From: Prevotella sp.
GTDB lineage: Bacteria; Bacteroidota; Bacteroidia; Bacteroidales; Bacteroidaceae
Length of the DNA stretch: 33,117 bases
Assembly (NCBI GenBank): GCA_017475265.1
Contig: JAFVFY010000004.1
Coordinates: forward strand, 1 to 33,117
Direction of reading: 5' to 3'
The position numbers were made by a program, and so were the translations under genes. Below, one piece after another: positions 82-9,407 of the stretch (positions are counted from its first letter, which is position 1; the number at the start of each line of letters is the position of its first letter). The notes below the pieces were generated by a model. The model was not told the DNA's origin and did not search any database. It worked only from the letters and a program-made list of their open reading frames with translations.

Positions 82-801
82 TCAGCCGAAGCGACGGTGA
101 AAGCAAGAAGAACTGAGAGGTAGGGGCAAAGTTGGGTTAATATATAAGTAGTCTATCAACTCCCAGACAAAAGATTTTGAGAATGGGTCACCACCAGTCA
201 GGCAGACTTTTATTAAGCCTTGGTCATAAAGTTCATCGATAATACGTTTGTAGTCATCAAGTGTCAATTCTTTTCTATCTCCACGTGTGCTGATTTCTTC
301 ATCGTTTCGTGTTGCGCCCACGTTATAGCAATGAATGCATTTCTCACTACAGCGATAAGTCAGTTCAAACATCACGCTTGTTATACCACCCACCTTTTCT
401 GTATAAAGTTGTTCGGCATTGGATATGGCGTATGGCAGCTTTTCTTGTGTAGTACGTTCTACTGTTTGCTGTTGCTGACAGTTGTATTCACTTACGCGTC
501 TGCGATAGTCGGCAATTATTTCGTCTGTTGGCAGCACAGAAGAAACAATGCCCATCTGCTCCAACTGTTCAAAGAACGGAGCTATACTTTCCATCGCGAT
601 GTTCAGCTTAGAGGCAATGGCATCAAGTTTAATCATACCATTACGAGGTACTGAAAGTATTTCTCCAATCACCATTGCTGAATAGCTCTCAAAGAAATAG
701 CTCATGCCCGCAATCAAATTGTAATAGATTGCAGCCTGTGCTTTTTCATTATATCTCCCACACGTCCAGACTGGGCGATAGTACGTATTTAGTTGATTCA
801 T
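82..801 (-). pseudogene. Truncated radical SAM peptide-maturase-like protein
   Basis: The 239-residue product has an N-terminal region of about 140 residues containing a possible winged-helix segment (LDAIASKLNIAMESIAPFF). A radical SAM start follows: CSEKCIHC, the CxxxCxxC motif that holds the 4Fe-4S cluster, then the LTGGDPF glycine-rich segment. The frame becomes unrelated low-quality sequence (PLPLSSSCFHRR) and stops soon after, so most of the TIM barrel and any SPASM domain are missing. The gene is probably dead, cut by recombination near position 140. Its start ATG overlaps the stop of the 798-1271 gene by 4 nt (ATGA), so it was the third gene of that operon. Radical SAM proteins of this type usually modify ribosomal peptides; that role here is inference. 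Confidence 0.65.
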
Positions 802-1274: not shown

Positions 1275-1742
1275 CTAAATGGATTTGTTGGAATTAAGTG
1301 AATATAAATAGTTTAGATAATAGATTATTGGCGGTATTGAATAATACAACAGGTCGAGAATGTCGAATGTTCCTCTTACCAAGCCCAATCCTTGCAACAC
1401 CTCGCTGCTAATGGTTACCACTGGCACAATTGCAAGGAAAACATATTTCTTCCATCCTTGGTCCTCATGCCAGATGGCATCTATAATGAAAAGGTAAGCT
1501 GCACAATAAAGACCGTCGGGCAAACTGAACTTAATGAAACTGGGAAGTTGCCAGTCAAGAACGGCAAGGCGAAGCGTGTCGATAAAAGCAGCAAGCCCCA
1601 ATGCCTTGCACCACACATAGATGTATAGTGTCTTGCTTCTGAAAAGAAGATAAATCAAACAGCCTATAGCAAGGAAAAGGAAGCCCAGGCAAGTCTTTAC
1701 TGTGCTGCTCTTCAGGATTGTTTTCTTGTCATCTCTTTCCAT
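1275..1742 (-). CDS. VanZ-like membrane protein, cassette copy 1
   Basis: 155 residues with about four predicted membrane segments (LGFLFLAIGCLIYLLF, GLYCAAYLFIIDAIW, YVFLAIVPVVTISSE and a C-terminal IPPIIYYLNYLY). The SSEVLQ...LVRGTFDILDLLYY segment matches the E-x-x-Q ... R-x-F-D-x-x-D pattern of VanZ-like proteins. The product closely resembles the 8500-8979 protein, sharing IYLLFRSK, KFSLPDGLYCAAY and VTISSEVLQ. It is first gene of a three-gene operon and is preceded by a structured leader RNA. VanZ family members are membrane proteins of mostly unknown activity; nothing here ties this one to glycopeptide resistance. Confidence 0.75.
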   Translation of the reverse strand: MERDDKKTILKSSTVKTCLGFLFLAIGCLIYLLFRSKTLYIYVWCKALGLAAFIDTLRLAVLDWQLPSFIKFSLPDGLYCAAYLFIIDAIWHEDQGWKKYVFLAIVPVVTISSEVLQGLGLVRGTFDILDLLYYSIPPIIYYLNYLYSLNSNKSI

Positions 1743-1774
1743 AGACTATACGGTTATTAGTATCAGTAACAGAA

Positions 1775-2012
1775 GTGTGAGCCTCTCGTTATCCTACCGA
1801 AGGCTCTGGTAAAACCTGTACAAAGATATTGAAACAGCCCACACCCTTGGAGAATATACAAGATGTGAGCCAAAGATGGCCACAACCAGGATTATTCCTG
1901 CCAAGGAGGGAACGTGTTCACAATCATCTGTTGTACTTTGAAGTTTACCAGACTTTTCGGTACAGATGAAAGCTATACGCTTCCTACTATGTTCGCCGCA
2001 GTTTTCCTACGA
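1775..2012 (-). ncRNA. Structured leader RNA, cassette copy 1 (candidate)
   Basis: This gene-free stretch upstream of the VanZ-like gene folds, on the minus strand, into an ordered set of helices. They are: a hairpin with a 5-nt loop (1979-1983 with 1969-1973); directly after it a 7-bp stem CATCTGT/ACAGATG (1962-1968 with 1925-1931) enclosing small hairpins; a linker; an arm closed by CTTGG/CCAAG (1901-1905 with 1846-1850) containing CAGGA-TCCTG and GGCC-GGCT hairpins; and a 6-bp stem GAGCCT/AGGCTC (1801-1806 with 1779-1784). The same order is seen at 8190-8437 with different bases. There is no obvious terminator before the gene, so it may be a 5' leader rather than a separate RNA. The 5' end is inferred from the -7 box. 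Confidence 0.5.
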
Positions 2013-2017
2013 CGTTG

Positions 2018-2025
2018 CAAATATA
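2018..2025 (-). promoter_or_regulatory. Promoter -7 box for RNA/VanZ cassette 1
   Basis: TATATTTG on the minus strand matches the Bacteroidetes -7 consensus TAnnTTTG. It lies just before the structured leader. No well-spaced TTTG -33 box was found. Confidence 0.5.
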
Positions 2026-2074
2026 GGAAAAGTTTAGCAAACAGCGTTCATCGTGGGCTGCTTTTTCACATTTT

Positions 2075-2470: not shown

Positions 2471-3730
2471 TCATTCTTCGATGTCGGTTTGTTGCTGTTG
2501 CCTCTCGCCGTTCTTCCGCATCTTGTTGAACACATAGCTTGTCAGTTGTTGGAAGATGGCTTCGGTTTCATTACGGATGACAGTTTCTGGGATGTCGGGG
2601 AAATCATTTACCAGTTGGTCGCCGATTGTCACTGAACGGTTGTGGAACTCCGTGGACTGTTTTGCCCAGAGCTTGCCAGTGATAGGCGAAGGAAATATGG
2701 AGTCGCAGAAAGTGAAGATGGTGGCCTTGTAGGCTGTGTCCATCTGTTTTTCCAGTTCTTTCTTCATCGTTGCCCGACTGTCTTTCGGTTGTGGCGGCAG
2801 AGCCTTTGGGGATTGAGAGTTGAGATTTGGGGATTGAGAATTGAGATTTCTTGCTGCGCAAGCGTCCTTCGGCCGAGCGGAGGATTGAGATTTAAGGCTT
2901 GTCGGCTGTTCGGGGGCTGATGGGGTGGGCGTGACGTGTGACTGCTGGTAGAAGAAGAAAGCGACACAGGCAGCAATGACAAGTGATGCTGCCATGATGA
3001 GAATGGCGTAGGTGTGTCGACGGACAAAGATGCTTTTTCTTATCTCTTCCACCGACGAAAAACGGTCTTCGGGATTGGCGGCAGTGCATCGGGCTATCAC
3101 CTTATTATATATATGGTGATTGGGCAACAGTTCAAGAATCTTGCCGATGGTGTAGATGTCGGCTTGAATTGATAATTGAGATTTGAGGTTTGAGATTTGT
3201 TCGGGGGCGGCAAAGGTAGCGGTGTGGCCTGTGGTGTCGGGGAAGGTGTCGGTGTAGCAGAAGCCGAGGTCGATGAGCTTCACCTGGTCGCCGATGCGGG
3301 TGAGCATGATGTTGTCGGGCTTCAGGTCGAGGTGGAGCACCTGATGGCTGTGTAGATAGCTCATGACATCGAGGAGTTGGCGGATGAATCTATCTGTGTG
3401 GCTGCGGTTCTTGAAATAGTTGGGATTGGTGGAGAGGCGTTGGGTGAGTGTCTCGCCGTCGATATACTCCATGAGTATGGTACTGCAGTCATTCTCAAAC
3501 GAGATGTAGCGTACCAGATTGGGATGCTCCAACCTGTAGCCCGTCTCGAACTCTTTGCGCAGTGCCTCGCGGTAGCGTATGTCGCCGGAAAACTCTGGCT
3601 TCAGCCGCTTTAGGAAGTGCAGCTTGCCGTAGAGTTTTACACGGAAAGCATCACAGGTGGCACCAGATGAAACTAACTGTTCAACCGATTCGTAGATTGA
3701 CTGGCTGTTTGTGAACTGTGACGTTTCCAC
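2471..3730 (-). CDS. Membrane Ser/Thr protein kinase (Hanks type)
   Basis: 419 residues. The N-terminal eukaryote-like kinase domain (about 1-235) shows the ATP-anchoring Lys (FLKRLK, K41), catalytic loop HLDLKPDN (D135, N140), the metal-binding Asp in DLG in place of DFG (D154), and APEQ (175-178). The glycine loop is poorly conserved. A single membrane helix (about 240-261) separates it from a roughly 160-residue C-terminal part, expected outside the membrane, with no recognised domain. Two low-complexity inserts, NLKSQLSI in the kinase lobe after APE and a longer SQS/NLNSQSP-rich linker after the helix, are translations of chromosomal word repeats (3165-3200, 2811-2900). It follows the 3756-4307 gene by 25 nt, so the two probably form an operon. 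Confidence 0.85.
   Translation of the reverse strand: METSQFTNSQSIYESVEQLVSSGATCDAFRVKLYGKLHFLKRLKPEFSGDIRYREALRKEFETGYRLEHPNLVRYISFENDCSTILMEYIDGETLTQRLSTNPNYFKNRSHTDRFIRQLLDVMSYLHSHQVLHLDLKPDNIMLTRIGDQVKLIDLGFCYTDTFPDTTGHTATFAAPEQISNLKSQLSIQADIYTIGKILELLPNHHIYNKVIARCTAANPEDRFSSVEEIRKSIFVRRHTYAILIMAASLVIAACVAFFFYQQSHVTPTPSAPEQPTSLKSQSSARPKDACAARNLNSQSPNLNSQSPKALPPQPKDSRATMKKELEKQMDTAYKATIFTFCDSIFPSPITGKLWAKQSTEFHNRSVTIGDQLVNDFPDIPETVIRNETEAIFQQLTSYVFNKMRKNGERQQQQTDIEE
2811..2900. repeat. Word-repeat array inside kinase gene
   Basis: Repeats of attgaga and gattgagattt, followed by a TTGCTGCGCAAG palindrome and another gattgag unit. They are translated in frame as the LNSQSPNLNSQSP linker of the kinase. 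Confidence 0.7.
3165..3200. repeat. Word-repeat array inside kinase domain
   Basis: Units of aattgag and tttgagattt inserted in frame just after the APEQ motif. Confidence 0.65.
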
Positions 3731-3734
3731 TTTG

Positions 3735-3755
3735 TTGATTGAAGATTGAAGATTG
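3735..3755. repeat. Word repeat between HTH and kinase genes
   Basis: Three near-identical attgaag units fill almost the entire gap between the two genes, immediately before the kinase start. Confidence 0.65.
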
Positions 3756-4307
3756 CTACTGTTTCCTGATGGACGAGAGACCCGACACCCGGCCAGCGGT
3801 AAACTGTCCTAACTGTTCGCCATTACGCCATACTTGGAGTACCAGTAGGGGGTGGTGGAGCACGAAGCTGAGGATTTCCACCATGTCGCCAACCTTCAGC
3901 TTACTGTTCACGCTTTCCGTCACGCGGTAGCGGTTGTTACCCAGATAACGGAACAGAACCCTGCGGTCGGGCAGATATTCTATCTCGACCTCCGCTTCGG
4001 GCGTAAGATCCGCCGAGCGTACTTCTCCGTCGGAGGCGTCAAAGTCGGAGTTCCCCTTGTCCTCAATCTCCTTGAGTTCGTCCCAGTGGGCATAGCCCAG
4101 ATAGCGGGCGATGACGTCAAGCGTGGTGACGTGAGGGTTGCGCTCATCGTCGGCAAAGCCTGTTAAGCGTTTAAGCGTAGTAGCACCAATACGCACTCCT
4201 GTCTTGCCCTCAATGTCGAGCGACAGCAGTTCGCAGTCAGAAGGCAAGCGCAAGTCGGCACCCGACTTGCGCTTTAGCATTTCTATGATATGAAAAGGTA
4301 GTCTCAT
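3756..4307 (-). CDS. Putative DNA-binding protein paired with kinase
   Basis: 183 residues. The N-terminal part (about 1-75) looks like a helix-turn-helix region: LKRKSGADLRLPS, then IGATTLKRLTGF and TTLDVIARYLGYAHWDEL. An acidic linker follows, then a beta-rich C-terminal half (VLFRYLGNNRYRVTES ... LKVGDMVEILSF). No catalytic motif is visible and the family is not recognised by name. Removing the guaA element would place its start only 4 nt after the guaA stop, so it was probably the next gene of a guaA-HTH-kinase operon. Its transcription may now depend on the promoter in the left end of the element. Confidence 0.6.
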   Translation of the reverse strand: MRLPFHIIEMLKRKSGADLRLPSDCELLSLDIEGKTGVRIGATTLKRLTGFADDERNPHVTTLDVIARYLGYAHWDELKEIEDKGNSDFDASDGEVRSADLTPEAEVEIEYLPDRRVLFRYLGNNRYRVTESVNSKLKVGDMVEILSFVLHHPLLVLQVWRNGEQLGQFTAGRVSGLSSIRKQ

Positions 4308-7469: not shown

Positions 7470-8105
7470 ATGAAAACAGCAGTTATCTACTCTCGCACAA
7501 GTTCAAGCGGTTATCAGCAGAATCGCCAAGACACATCAAGACAAGTGGCAGACCTCAAAGCGTATGCCAAGTATGCACAGATGGAGGTGGTGAAGGTGTA
7601 CGAGGAACATGTCAGCGGTGCAAGCAAACAGAAGCCTACACTTGTTGAGGCTATCGACTACTGCAAGCGTGAACATGTTGACACATTACTCGTCAGTGAG
7701 TTGAGCCGTGTGGGTCGTAACGCTTTCGAGGTACTTGCAACGGTGAAGGAGTTGGTGGATAACAAGATTAACTTGTTCATGCAGAAGGAACAGTTGACCC
7801 TACTCGATGAGAAGGGTGAGCCGACACTCTTTGCACCGATTATGATTGCCACTCTCTCAACATGTGCCCAGTTGGAGCGTGACAGCATCAGTTTTCGCCT
7901 CAACAGCGGACGCAAGCAGTACGTGGAGAATGGCGGTCAGTTAGGACGTAAGAAGGGCAGCACCAAAACGAAGGAGCAAAAGGAAAAGCAGTACAAAGAA
8001 GTGCTCACCTACCTACGCAAAGACTACTCCATCCGTGTGACTGCAAAGCTATGCAATGTCAGCGTTGCAACCGTTCAACGGCTCAAAACAGAGTTTGAAC
8101 TATGA
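7470..8105 (+). CDS. Serine recombinase (resolvase/invertase family)
   Basis: 211 residues from the ATG at 7470. The N-terminal catalytic domain shows VIYSRTSSSGYQQ (likely nucleophile S11), the Arg-containing LLVSELSRVGRN segment and LERDSISFRLNSGRK at the start of the long arm helix. The C-terminal helix-turn-helix (about 170-210, YSIRVTAKLCNVSVATVQRL) would bind DNA. The size fits small resolvase/invertases, which cut and rejoin DNA through a 5' phosphoserine. The element already has a tyrosine integrase, so this enzyme may resolve multimers or invert a segment. No invertible segment was found nearby. Confidence 0.85.
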   Translation: MKTAVIYSRTSSSGYQQNRQDTSRQVADLKAYAKYAQMEVVKVYEEHVSGASKQKPTLVEAIDYCKREHVDTLLVSELSRVGRNAFEVLATVKELVDNKINLFMQKEQLTLLDEKGEPTLFAPIMIATLSTCAQLERDSISFRLNSGRKQYVENGGQLGRKKGSTKTKEQKEKQYKEVLTYLRKDYSIRVTAKLCNVSVATVQRLKTEFEL

Positions 8106-8176
8106 CTAATAGCAAACAAATTGCAAAATTTTGGTAAATAATTCAATAGACAGAGCGTTCTTCCAGAAAAATTGCG

Positions 8177-8184
8177 TAAATTTG
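8177..8184 (+). promoter_or_regulatory. Promoter -7 box for leader RNA 2
   Basis: TAAATTTG matches TAnnTTTG. It stands at the same position relative to the RNA fold as the box at 2018-2025 in copy 1. Confidence 0.55.
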
Positions 8185-8189
8185 TGGCG

Positions 8190-8437
8190 CAGTTCTGAAA
8201 AGGGCTGTGACATATTAAGAAAGCGCATTTCGCTTATTCTGACCCTGTGAACTTGGACACTTCACAAGTTGGCCGAAAGGCTAATGTAATATCAGAATAG
8301 TGGGAAGGACGCTCTTCTTGGTTTGTATTCGTATAGTACGCAATACATCCAAGTGGGGTTTGTTCATTCTCCTTATCTGTATTACAAGGGAGTCCAAGCC
8401 CTACAGGGAAGATAGGGGATGGAGGCTCCACTTTTTT
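8190..8437 (+). ncRNA. Structured leader RNA, cassette copy 2 (candidate)
   Basis: Helices in order: AAGCG/CGCTT with a 5-nt loop (8221-8225, 8231-8235); ATTCTGA/TCAGAAT (8236-8242, 8292-8298) enclosing AACTTG/CAAGTT (8250-8255, 8265-8270) and GCC-GAAA-GGC (8272-8281, a GNRA tetraloop); a long arm CTTGG/CCAAG (8317-8321, 8349-8353) continued by TGTATT/AATACA and CGTA/TACG; CTCCTT/AGGGAG (8369-8374, 8387-8392); and a TGGA-GGC-TCCA hairpin with T6. No convincing ORF lies inside. The order and loop sizes match copy 1 while many bases differ. The terminal hairpin suggests either a separate RNA or attenuation before the VanZ-like gene. It is not recognisable to me as 6S, RNase P or tmRNA. Confidence 0.6.
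8420..8437 (+). terminator. Terminator or attenuator after RNA 2
   Basis: Short stem TGGA/TCCA (8420-8430), then C and six T (8432-8437). The weak stem may be extended by pairing with upstream GGAG segments. Confidence 0.45.
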
Positions 8438-8499
8438 ATATGCCCTATTCAATAACAATTAACCGCACTCACTGAGCCGAAGGTGCTGAAGTTGTTTGG

Positions 8500-8979
8500 A
8501 TGACTCAGTCATGCCGACATCGTACAAACAAGTGGGTCGCTTCTGAGGTTATCTTGGGAGTCGTTTTCCTTGTATGTGGTTGTGCTATCTACTTACTATT
8601 CAGAAGCAAGAGCCTCAACATCTATCAATGGTGTTCTGCATTGGGGTTATCCAGCAAGATTGACTCGCTCCGCAACAGTGTTCAAGGTTGGAACATATCG
8701 GAGTTCGTTAAGTTCAGTCTCCCAGATGGTTTGTACTGTGCCGCCTATATTCTTATCATTGATGCCATTTGGCATTATGACAATGGCGTGACCAAATACA
8801 TCGTAATTTCACTTGTTCCTTTTGTGACCATCAGCAGTGAGGTGTTACAATACTTTGGATTAGTCAAGGGGACATTCGACATATACGACCTTATTTGCTA
8901 TACGACACCACCAATGATTTATCTTATTTACATTTATAATTCATTCAAGTCAAACAAATTAAAAATTAAAAGATTATGA
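8500..8979 (+). CDS. VanZ-like membrane protein, cassette copy 2
   Basis: 159 residues with membrane segments at about 15-32, 75-92, 97-115 and 128-145. The SSEVLQYFGLVKGTFDIYDL segment keeps the VanZ-like E..Q...K/R..FD..D pattern. It aligns along its whole length with the 1275-1742 protein; FRSK, KFSLPDGLYCAAY and the GTFDI region are nearly identical while the N-terminus differs. Its stop overlaps the next start (ATGA), the same tight packing as in copy 1. It is preceded by leader RNA 2. Membrane location is well supported; activity is unknown. Confidence 0.75.
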   Translation: MTQSCRHRTNKWVASEVILGVVFLVCGCAIYLLFRSKSLNIYQWCSALGLSSKIDSLRNSVQGWNISEFVKFSLPDGLYCAAYILIIDAIWHYDNGVTKYIVISLVPFVTISSEVLQYFGLVKGTFDIYDLICYTTPPMIYLIYIYNSFKSNKLKIKRL

Positions 8980-9407
8980 AAAAGTATTTTATGACAGTCG
9001 CAACAGTGGCACTCTTTGCCATCGGTTTTGCAGCATCAGATGAAGAAAACAACGAGTCTCAACAGACCGAGCAGCAGCAAACTGAACAAACTGAACAGAA
9101 ACAAGAAACAGAAGCCGAGCGTCAAGCACGTGAGCAAAAAGAAGAAGCAGAACGACAAGCACGTGAACAAGCCGAAAAAGAGAACAAGAAAAAGGAAATT
9201 TTGGAACAAGCCCAAAAAGCAGGATACGAAAAGGGTTTCACTGTAGGTCCATCAAGTTACATAACGGATGACCCAAAGATTTATGCGAAATCGTATTATA
9301 CAAGTCGTTATGGTGCTCCAACAAGCAGCGAAGAAAAAGAATTGTATGAAGCATTTGTATCTATATACTTAGAGGCATACGAAGAAGGTCATAAAGCGCA
9401 GCAATAG
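8976..9407 (+). CDS. Small exported charged protein, cassette copy 2
   Basis: 143 residues. Signal segment (FMTVATVALFAIGFAASDEE), then a long Gln/Glu/Lys-rich helix with repeats (TEQQQTEQTEQ, AERQAREQKEEAERQAREQ) likely to form a coiled coil. The C-terminal domain has AGYEKGFTVG, YGAPTSSEEKELYEAF and YLEAYEEGHKA. The signal and C-terminal domain match the 798-1271 protein, but the middle does not, so the linker evolves freely. It overlaps the VanZ-like gene by 4 nt. Probably periplasmic or membrane-tethered; function unknown. Confidence 0.75.
   Translation: MKKYFMTVATVALFAIGFAASDEENNESQQTEQQQTEQTEQKQETEAERQAREQKEEAERQAREQAEKENKKKEILEQAQKAGYEKGFTVGPSSYITDDPKIYAKSYYTSRYGAPTSSEEKELYEAFVSIYLEAYEEGHKAQQ

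What the first reader, a model, noticed from the sequence alone, without database searches (positions are those of the whole stretch)
8190..8437. New candidate structured RNA family with compensatory changes between two copies
Copy 1 (2012-1775, minus) and copy 2 (8190-8437, plus) show the same series: TAnnTTTG box, GAAAA-containing 5' part, AAGC(G) hairpin with a 5-nt loop, immediately adjacent 7-bp stem (CATCTGT/ACAGATG versus ATTCTGA/TCAGAAT) enclosing two small hairpins, linker, then an arm closed by identical CTTGG/CCAAG. The stem bases differ but pairing is kept, which is the signature of selected RNA structure. It is not recognisable to me as 6S RNA, RNase P RNA or tmRNA. Association with a membrane protein recalls OLE RNA in principle only.
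Basis: seen in the sequence. Interest (0 to 1): 0.85.

Follow-up and report, generated by a model that had tools for sequence, protein, structure and literature searches.

The report
Widespread Bacteroidota kissing-loop leader RNA
The two copies in this window belong to a large family of intricately folded RNAs, absent from the standard RNA catalogue, found in many copies across related gut bacteria and usually sitting just in front of a gene, where they probably act as a switch for that gene.

Summary
Both copies fold far better than shuffles (z -4.8 and -4.5). Homologues from hundreds of genomes give one consensus. Two local hairpins kiss through their loops: 7 bp, 204/214 and 483/502 cells paired, 6 of 7 pairs with double changes. 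In two long-range helices, B1 and G, a copy's own strands pair better than strands swapped between copies in 63/63 and 61/63 copies. An upstream strand and a later strand next to a U-run compete for one middle strand.

Covariance models find it in 152/299 sampled genomes of the window's genus, 92/247 of the order and 20 outside the order, often in several copies. No Rfam 15 family matches it.

Inside the order a same-strand gene starts about 50-60 nt after it (56/62, 28/29); outside it, 9/18. The genes are diverse. Best reading: a cis-acting attenuator or riboswitch-like leader with unknown signal. Switching is inferred: nested folding does not reproduce it, no expression data were available, and earlier literature could be checked only partly.

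The parts
8177..8184 (+). TAnnTTTG -7 promoter box of copy 2 (TAAATTTG)
   Evidence: box at the RNA 5' end in 45/63 representatives against 0.8 expected by shuffling. That this is the Bacteroidota -7 element is recalled knowledge
8152..8164 (+). upstream element U2 of copy 2, complementary to the linker 8303-8315
   Evidence: upstream-linker complementarity z=5.3 over 63 representatives
8185..8444 (+). copy 2 of the RNA (class with GUGAA[CUUGGACAC]UUCAC)
   Evidence: covariance model R1 match, 182.9 bits, E 3.7e-41; this sequence was in the R1 seed
8189..8208 (+). P1 hairpin (8189-8195 with 8202-8208)
   Evidence: top-ranked helix in an all-against-all column scan; 5/5 pairs with double changes in A6
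8221..8235 (+). P2 hairpin AAGCG/CGCUU
   Evidence: 92% of cells paired
   Evidence: own-versus-swapped z=8.0, 54/63; only 53-66% of cells paired in the column counts
8243..8248 (+). B1 5' strand, long-range pair with 8403-8408
   Evidence: z=22.8, 63/63 representatives; second set z=18.2, 32/32
8247..8265 (+). A1 hairpin; its loop 8252-8258 kisses 8392-8398
   Evidence: kissing cells paired 204/214 (A6) and 483/502 (A5), 6 of 7 pairs with double changes in each
8285..8291 (+). G 5' strand, long-range pair with 8380-8386
   Evidence: placed by eye; family z=20.9, 61/63, second set z=18.0, 32/32. For this copy the script's own window picked only a 3-bp match, because the insert 8271-8281 shifts it
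8303..8315 (+). linker, complementary to the upstream element
8317..8353 (+). C arm closed by CTTGG/CCAAG (8317-8321 with 8349-8353)
8351..8360 (+). D 5' strand, pairs with D 3' strand 8424-8433
   Evidence: z=9.1, 45/63; 91% of cells paired
8371..8378 (+). E 5' strand, pairs with 8410-8417
   Evidence: z=8.9, but that window largely captures D
8388..8401 (+). F hairpin with kissing loop 8392-8398
   Evidence: 94-96% of cells paired, 4 of 4 pairs with double changes
8403..8408 (+). B1 3' strand
8424..8438 (+). D 3' strand and U-run (intrinsic-terminator-like)
   Evidence: U-run in 45 of 50 core-set copies
8465..8486 (+). W hairpin, loop GAGCC complementary to GGCTC of D 3'
   Evidence: W-D3' z=4.0 (42/63) and, second set, 3.4 (20/32)
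8500..8979 (+). downstream gene, 159-aa VanZ-like membrane protein (name from recalled resemblance, no Pfam match)
2018..2025 (-). TAnnTTTG box of copy 1 (TATATTTG)
2044..2060 (-). upstream element of copy 1 (CAGCCCAC...), complementary to D 5' strand 1836-1847
   Evidence: upstream-D5' z=6.8, 46/63
1762..2017 (-). copy 1 of the RNA
   Evidence: R1 match, 214.8 bits, E 7.0e-49; R1 seed sequence. Helices: P1 2007-2013/1995-2001, P2 1970-1982, A 1962-1969/1924-1931, B1 1956-1962/1795-1801, A1 1941-1955, kiss 1945-1951/1806-1812, G 1931-1936/1818-1823, C 1901-1907/1844-1850, D 1836-1847/1773-1783, F 1801-1817. No U-run follows D, and no W element was found
1275..1742 (-). downstream gene of copy 1, 155-aa VanZ-like protein
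   Evidence: 63% identical to 8500-8979
2471..4307 (-). upstream genes of copy 1: 183-aa protein (3756-4307) and Ser/Thr kinase (2471-3730)
   Evidence: relatives of both found within 3.5 kb of 20/46 and 19/46 RNA loci; Pkinase by Pfam

Best explanation
A new family of structured RNA that acts as a cis-regulatory 5' leader. Shown by comparison: the element starts at a TAnnTTTG box and folds around two hairpins whose loops kiss (A1 and F). Two long-range helices (B1, G) join these hairpins into a four-way junction. Inside the junction an upstream strand pairs with a middle strand; a later strand next to a U-run can pair with that same middle strand. In the order, a gene on the same strand usually begins some 35-60 nt further on. 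Inferred: the folded junction holds the middle strand and lets RNA polymerase read on into the gene, while loss of the junction frees it for the terminator. A signal (small molecule, protein or RNA) that stabilises or breaks the junction sets the outcome. In the long form of the Prevotella group an extra upstream strand and a hairpin before the start codon (W) add further alternative partners. The signal is unknown.
For: Structure: own-versus-swapped tests B1 z=22.8, G 20.9, A 8.0, D 9.1 over 63 representatives found with R1, whose structure held neither B1 nor G; controls 1.0 and -0.4. In 32 further copies from places not used to build R2: B1 18.2, G 18.0, antiterminator-like hairpin LD 4.2, D 5.1, W-D3' 3.4, controls 0.2 and -0.1; R2, which found them, does model B1, G and LD. 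Kissing loops vary together across many 7-mers, 204/214 and 483/502 cells paired. Position: same-strand ORF start -10..+200 nt after the RNA in 56/62 (median 48 nt; 61 of the 62 from the order) against 8/57 in the mirror direction; 28/29 (median 61) against 2/24 for the core form inside the order. Start signals: 45/63 against 0.8 expected; a second box further upstream in 28/62 against 2.3. U-run in 45/50. VanZ-like genes follow several different RNA subtypes.
Against: Nested folding gives the terminator almost zero probability: in 34 long-form copies with or without the upstream strand (medians near 0), and in 50 core copies, where only 2 exceed 0.5 and none does when the long-range pairs are forbidden. 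Switching is therefore not shown, although pseudoknots, kissing and kinetics lie outside that model. Copy 1 has no U-run. LD and D beat the median swap in only 14/32 and 19/32. Outside the order only 9/18 loci have a same-strand ORF within 200 nt and 11/18 have a divergent ORF before the RNA; the nine without one have a gene of a shared family starting 228-713 nt downstream instead, which fits a free-standing RNA at least as well. Downstream genes share no single pathway. No expression data were available.
Confidence: 0.55

Rival explanations
1. A free-standing noncoding RNA with its own promoter and terminator that acts in trans, by pairing through its exposed loops or by binding a protein; its place in front of genes is secondary.
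For: Promoter box at one end and U-run at the other. A compact kissing-loop fold suits a stable RNA (inference). Outside the order 9/18 loci lack a same-strand ORF within 200 nt. Nested folding favours one stable fold, not two.
Against: 56/62 and 28/29 copies lie just upstream of a same-strand gene, far above the mirror counts of 8/57 and 2/24. Complementarity to W, between the RNA and the start codon, is conserved. Many divergent copies per genome would be unusual for a trans-acting RNA (inference).
Confidence: 0.27
2. An RNA tied to a mobile or variable gene cassette: each copy marks or helps insertion of cargo next to it, possibly as a guide that pairs with DNA just upstream of its own promoter.
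For: In the long form two RNA segments flanking the C arm are complementary to DNA upstream of the promoter and covary with it (z=6.8 and 5.3). Cargo is highly variable, while a 183-aa/kinase pair recurs upstream. Copy 2 lies next to a serine recombinase, and a related one lies within 3.5 kb of four other class 1 copies (L033, L036, L088, L098).
Against: The upstream complementarity is absent in the core form (z=0.2). Apart from those four class 1 loci no recombinase cluster was noticed among the neighbours (clusters shared by three or more loci only). A second TAnnTTTG box upstream suggests the element is also transcribed. No blastn match to copy 1 in plasmids or to copy 2 in phages.
Confidence: 0.1
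3. A protein-coding or decayed coding region that mimics RNA structure.
For: 8 of 97 copies have an ATG frame spanning at least 80% of the RNA; seven belong to one subtype (L097 twice, L099, L102, L103, L107, L078), six of them starting 33-34 nt before the model start.
Against: The other 89 copies have no such frame. Within the open-frame subtype, differences fall evenly on codon positions (for example 35/32/38, 14/16/17, 14/19/15), so there is no coding signal. Double changes at nearly all paired columns do not fit codon constraint.
Confidence: 0.02

Closest known systems
Riboswitches and other transcription attenuators (functional kind; purine and cobalamin riboswitches have kissing loops - recalled)
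   Same: 5' leader position, promoter at one end, U-run terminator at the other, alternative pairing of one strand, kissing hairpin loops
   Different: no Rfam riboswitch model matches; downstream genes share no pathway; ligand unknown; long-range B1/G junction with very high sequence turnover
DUF805 RNA (RF03081, Rfam cis-reg)
   Same: short leader RNA; lies about 35-45 nt after this RNA in three genomes; a DUF805 protein follows one copy
   Different: a different, 68-nt model that does not match this RNA; of ten loci fetched for DUF805 matches (L146-L155) none gave an R1 match, although L149 carries the core by eye, so R1 misses distant copies
OLE RNA
   Same: noncoding RNA next to a membrane-protein gene in some copies
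   Different: about 200-260 nt rather than about 610 (recalled), no cmscan match, membrane protein not constant
6S RNA, including 6S-flavo (RF01685)
   Same: long imperfect hairpin as minimum-energy fold, discrete size
   Different: no cmscan match; many copies per genome; gene-leader position
GUCCY-hairpin motif (Weinberg 2010, PMC2864571; only its table row was seen)
   Same: candidate motif in Bacteroidetes; the F hairpin here often carries GUCCA in its loop
   Different: no Rfam accession in that table; its consensus is in an additional file that I could not see, so any relation is untested
Rfp18 sRNA of Flavobacterium psychrophilum (PMC9723704, passages seen)
   Same: structured RNA conserved within another Bacteroidota genus

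Membership tests
Any Rfam 15 family | covariance-model match to the RNA itself | tested here: not met
   whole window at gathering, RNA region to E 5, 20 loci to E 0.5, 12 loci at gathering, 20 loci to E 0.5 (some are places already): no match on the RNA
Riboswitch or attenuator (functional kind) | leader position just upstream of a same-strand gene | tested here: met
   56/62 and 28/29 inside the order; but 9/18 outside the order
Riboswitch or attenuator (functional kind) | mutually exclusive antiterminator and terminator pairings | tested here: inconclusive
   both pairings exceed swaps (LD z=6.2, D z=8.1 over 41 representatives; 4.2 and 5.1 over 32 new places) but nested folding puts the terminator near zero
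Riboswitch or attenuator (functional kind) | a specific ligand, protein or leader-peptide signal | not testable with these tools
   needs binding or reporter assays
DUF805 RNA (RF03081) | match to the 68-nt Rfam model | tested here: not met
   model matches only neighbouring stretches, not this RNA
OLE RNA | Rfam OLE model match and about 610 nt length (length recalled) | tested here: not met
   no match; element about 200-260 nt
6S RNA / 6S-flavo | Rfam model match | tested here: not met
   no match
IS110-type bridge RNA | adjacent IS110 recombinase | not tested
   neighbours were clustered and a sample scanned with Pfam without one appearing, but not all neighbours were scanned
IS110-type bridge RNA | RNA loops complementary to element-end DNA | tested here: inconclusive
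   upstream complementarity present in the long form, absent in the core form

The most novel reading that the evidence does not exclude
A phylum-wide orphan switch class: an abundant structured leader RNA of Bacteroidota, present in many divergent copies per genome, which controls exported and accessory proteins by a kissing-loop-locked four-way junction that senses a signal not yet known, with a Prevotella-group elaboration that adds upstream and start-codon-proximal partners.
Probability: 0.4. Interest if true: 0.9.

Novelty: new variant of a known kind. Interest (0 to 1): 0.78.

Why it matters
Bacteroidota are major gut and rumen bacteria (general knowledge), and few of their regulatory RNAs are understood. 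An RNA with this much covariation, found in about half of the sampled genomes of one genus and in many other genera, yet absent from Rfam, is a large gap in annotation. If it is a switch, the signal and the many genes behind it become directly testable, and it offers a native expression control for gut bacteria. If it is a free-standing RNA, its kissing-loop core is a new target for structure work.

Tried and rejected
Dropped ideas. (1) A trans kissing interaction between this RNA and the DUF805 hairpin (loop GUCCAGA in L139): most DUF805 loops seen read AGACCAGA or AGAUCAGA, not complementary, so dropped. (2) The upstream element as a universal guide or antiterminator: real in the long form but absent in the core form, and it does not lower predicted terminator formation, which is near zero anyway. 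(3) VanZ as a dedicated partner: no R1 match in 26 of 26 other loci; L005 and L007, given in the same call, matched. R1 can miss distant copies, so this is not proof of absence. (4) Protein-coding reading: open frames in 8 of 97 copies, but no codon-position signal. (5) Sm-like fold of the 183-aa neighbour: Foldseek matches to Lsm proteins have E 0.05-0.19 and no match of any kind reaches 0.001, so not claimed. (6) Defence-system reading of eight window proteins: PADLOC gave kinase-domain similarity for the kinase, weak viperin-like matches for the radical SAM protein and one marginal match for 8976-9407.

Rows dropped before counts: searches used 97 of 109 rows after I removed 12 antisense, fragment or very weak rows, reduced to 63 representatives; searches then counted the 62 with at least 400 nt downstream (57 of them also with 400 nt upstream, for the mirror). 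One search used the first 50 of 55 matches (the last five are antisense or truncated), 41 representatives, 32 of them from places not used to build R2. In one search I had put one locus outside the order (L186) into the order group; one search corrects this from 29/30 and 8/17 to 28/29 and 9/18. In one search, 34 of 63 representatives passed the score cut-off for the upstream helix and only these were folded. The column counts include the antisense and fragment rows (three in A6, nine in A5). R1 and R2 seed sequences match their models by construction. A5 and A6 are fitted to R1, which held part of stem A, P1, P2, A1, D and F but not B1, G or the kissing pairs; the structures counted were read off one member each.

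Literature: eight searches of the held library. Weinberg 2017 (10.1093/nar/gkx699) is not held. PMC8040213, PMC2864571 and PMC9723704 were seen as passages only. A prior description outside Rfam therefore cannot be excluded.

Full report
WHAT WAS CHECKED. The window lies in a genome of the same genus as Prevotella sp. MAGs. This is inferred: two of the genus-set genomes hold contigs of the same length as named Prevotella or Prevotellaceae records (G178:C62 and L035, both 59064; G258:C63 and L036, both 24300). They fold better than dinucleotide shuffles (z -4.47 and -4.82). No Rfam family matches them and ARAGORN finds no tRNA or tmRNA in the window.

HOMOLOGUES. A protein search with the downstream gene gave 43/200 genus genomes with a relative and five named loci. 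Aligned upstream regions showed the RNA in front of most of the closest relatives. A covariance model, R1, was built from ten sequences. It then found matches in 152/299 genus genomes at E<=0.01, 135/251 family genomes (21/30 genera) at E<=1e-4, 51/295 order genomes (36/184 genera) and 2/296 in a phylum sample, one of them the own genome. The own genome has 13 matches at E<=1, seven below 0.001. A second model, R2, came from 13 shorter core members. It raised this to 92/247 order genomes (72/174 genera), with up to the scoring limit of 11 per genome, and 22/247 in the phylum sample, 20 of them outside the order. E-values are rough because calibration is shortened, and the genome searches use strict filters, so copy numbers are lower bounds.

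STRUCTURE. A scan of all column pairs on ten sequences ranked P1 and the long-range helix B1 first by number of pair types. The consensus, 5' to 3', is: P1 (long form), P2, stem A, B1 5', hairpin A1, G 5', A 3', linker, C arm (long form) or hairpin LD (core form), D 5', E 5', G 3', hairpin F, B1 3', E 3', D 3', U-run. The loops of A1 and F pair over 7 bp and change together through many versions (UCUGGAC/GUCCAGA, CUUGGAC/GUCCAAG, UCUCGAC/GUCGAGA, CUUCGAC/GUCGAAG, CUGGUAA/UUACCAG and more). On A6, 51 pairs are 82.1% paired with 291 double-change cells against 107 +- 9 shuffled, and slid versions are 38-45% paired. On A5, 49 pairs are 77.7% paired, 431 against 171 +- 11, slid versions 37-53%. 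Helices differ: kissing 204/214 and 483/502 cells, F 94-96%, D 91%, P2 92%, but B1 64-78%, G 46-65% and A 53-66%, which sit in regions of uneven length that the alignments handle badly.

ALIGNMENT-FREE TEST. To get round that, I compared, for each helix, a copy's own two strands with strands swapped between copies. For 63 representatives: B1 z=22.8 (63/63 above the median swap), G 20.9 (61/63), A 8.0 (54/63), E 8.9 and D 9.1 (45/63 each; the E window largely captures D), upstream-D5' 6.8 (46/63), upstream-linker 5.3 (41/63), W-D3' 4.0 (42/63; 1 of 5000 permutations as high); controls 1.0 and -0.4. R1, which found these copies, held neither B1 nor G. In 32 core copies from new places: B1 18.2 and G 18.0 (32/32 each), A 4.5 (25/32), LD 4.2 (14/32), D 5.1 (19/32), W-D3' 3.4 (20/32; 3/5000); upstream-D5' 0.2 and control -0.1. 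R2, which found these, models B1, G and LD, so this set is a weaker test for them. LD and D are also conserved in sequence, which is why swaps often pair too. The upstream element is a feature of the long form only.

POSITION. TAnnTTTG lies at the RNA start in 45/63 (0.8 expected), and a second box lies 45-125 nt upstream in 28/62 (2.3 expected). A same-strand ORF starts -10 to +200 nt after the RNA in 56/62, median 48 nt, against 8/57 in the mirror direction. For the core form it is 28/29 inside the order (median 61; mirror 2/24) and 9/18 outside it (mirror 11/18). Ten of the outside loci, including all nine without a near ORF, share a CarboxypepD_reg-like gene 228-713 nt downstream (Pfam run on one member). 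Downstream genes are diverse: VanZ-like, Tubulin_2 with GYF, subtilase, WG repeats, AAA ATPase, BspA repeats, OmpA/MORN, radical SAM with SPASM, FRG, PvuRts1I-like, zinc ribbon, DUF805 and others; many have no Pfam match (a sample). First downstream genes look exported in 26/37 core loci against 31/85 other neighbours (Fisher p 7.5e-4), and in 17/36 against 69/231 long-form loci (p 0.054), by a crude hydrophobicity rule. A 183-aa protein and a kinase lie within 3.5 kb in 20/46 and 19/46 long-form loci.

CODING CHECK. 8 of 97 copies have an ATG frame spanning at least 80% of the RNA, seven of them in one subtype. Differences between those members fall evenly on the three codon positions, so there is no sign that the frame is under protein selection.

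MECHANISM. The core form is the clearest guide. The middle strand (D 5'/E 5') can pair with the preceding strand inside the B1/G junction (LD) or with D 3'/E 3' next to the U-run. That is the logic of an attenuator, with the junction in the place of an aptamer. This step is inferred. Nested thermodynamic folding keeps LD and B1 (median probabilities 0.95 and 0.91) and puts the terminator above 0.5 in only 2 of 50 core copies, and LD persists when the long-range pairs are forbidden. In the long form the terminator is near zero with and without the upstream strand; in two of 34 copies it even rises with it. So the computation shows alternative pairings that are both conserved, not a switch.

KNOWN OR NEW. 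No Rfam 15 model matches the RNA in the window or in 52 further loci scanned, some of them one place fetched twice. DUF805 RNA lies just after it in three genomes, probably as another leader element. Earlier motif surveys could be read only in part; an unnamed or supplementary description cannot be excluded. I file it as a new family of a known broad kind, a structured leader RNA, with an architecture that I could not match to a known class.

Noticed in passing
window 82-801 (-): A 239-aa radical SAM protein ends early compared with 518-536-aa relatives beside other copies (L082, L084), so the window copy looks truncated.
   Followed up: no
window 7473-8105 (+): A serine recombinase gene lies directly upstream of RNA copy 2; serine recombinases also lie near class 1 copies in L033, L036, L088 and L098.
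   Followed up: partly
window 3756-4307 (-): 183-aa protein without Pfam match; predicted as a helical N-terminal part plus a beta-rich C-terminal part (pLDDT 87.8) with only weak, non-significant Sm-like and galectin matches.
   Followed up: partly
L139 1737-1802, G647:C270 5470-5538, L164 704-773: DUF805 RNA (RF03081) follows this RNA by about 35-45 nt in three genomes.
   Followed up: partly
L092 5084-5269 and L094 2537-2782: Partial or divergent class 1-like copies sit directly in front of the 183-aa/kinase operon, which is itself followed by another copy of the RNA.
   Followed up: no
L110 9309-9544: In this copy the upstream element is joined directly to the RNA, as if the internal promoter had been deleted.
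   Followed up: no
L097 6060-6316 and 10447-10703, L099, L102, L103, L107, L078: One subtype of the RNA is open in one reading frame almost throughout, mostly from an ATG 33-34 nt before the model start; no codon-position signal.
   Followed up: yes
e.g. G164:C17, G032:C56, G286:C2, G256:C72: Several copies lie within a few hundred bases of contig ends, as expected if they or their flanks are repeated in the genome.
   Followed up: no
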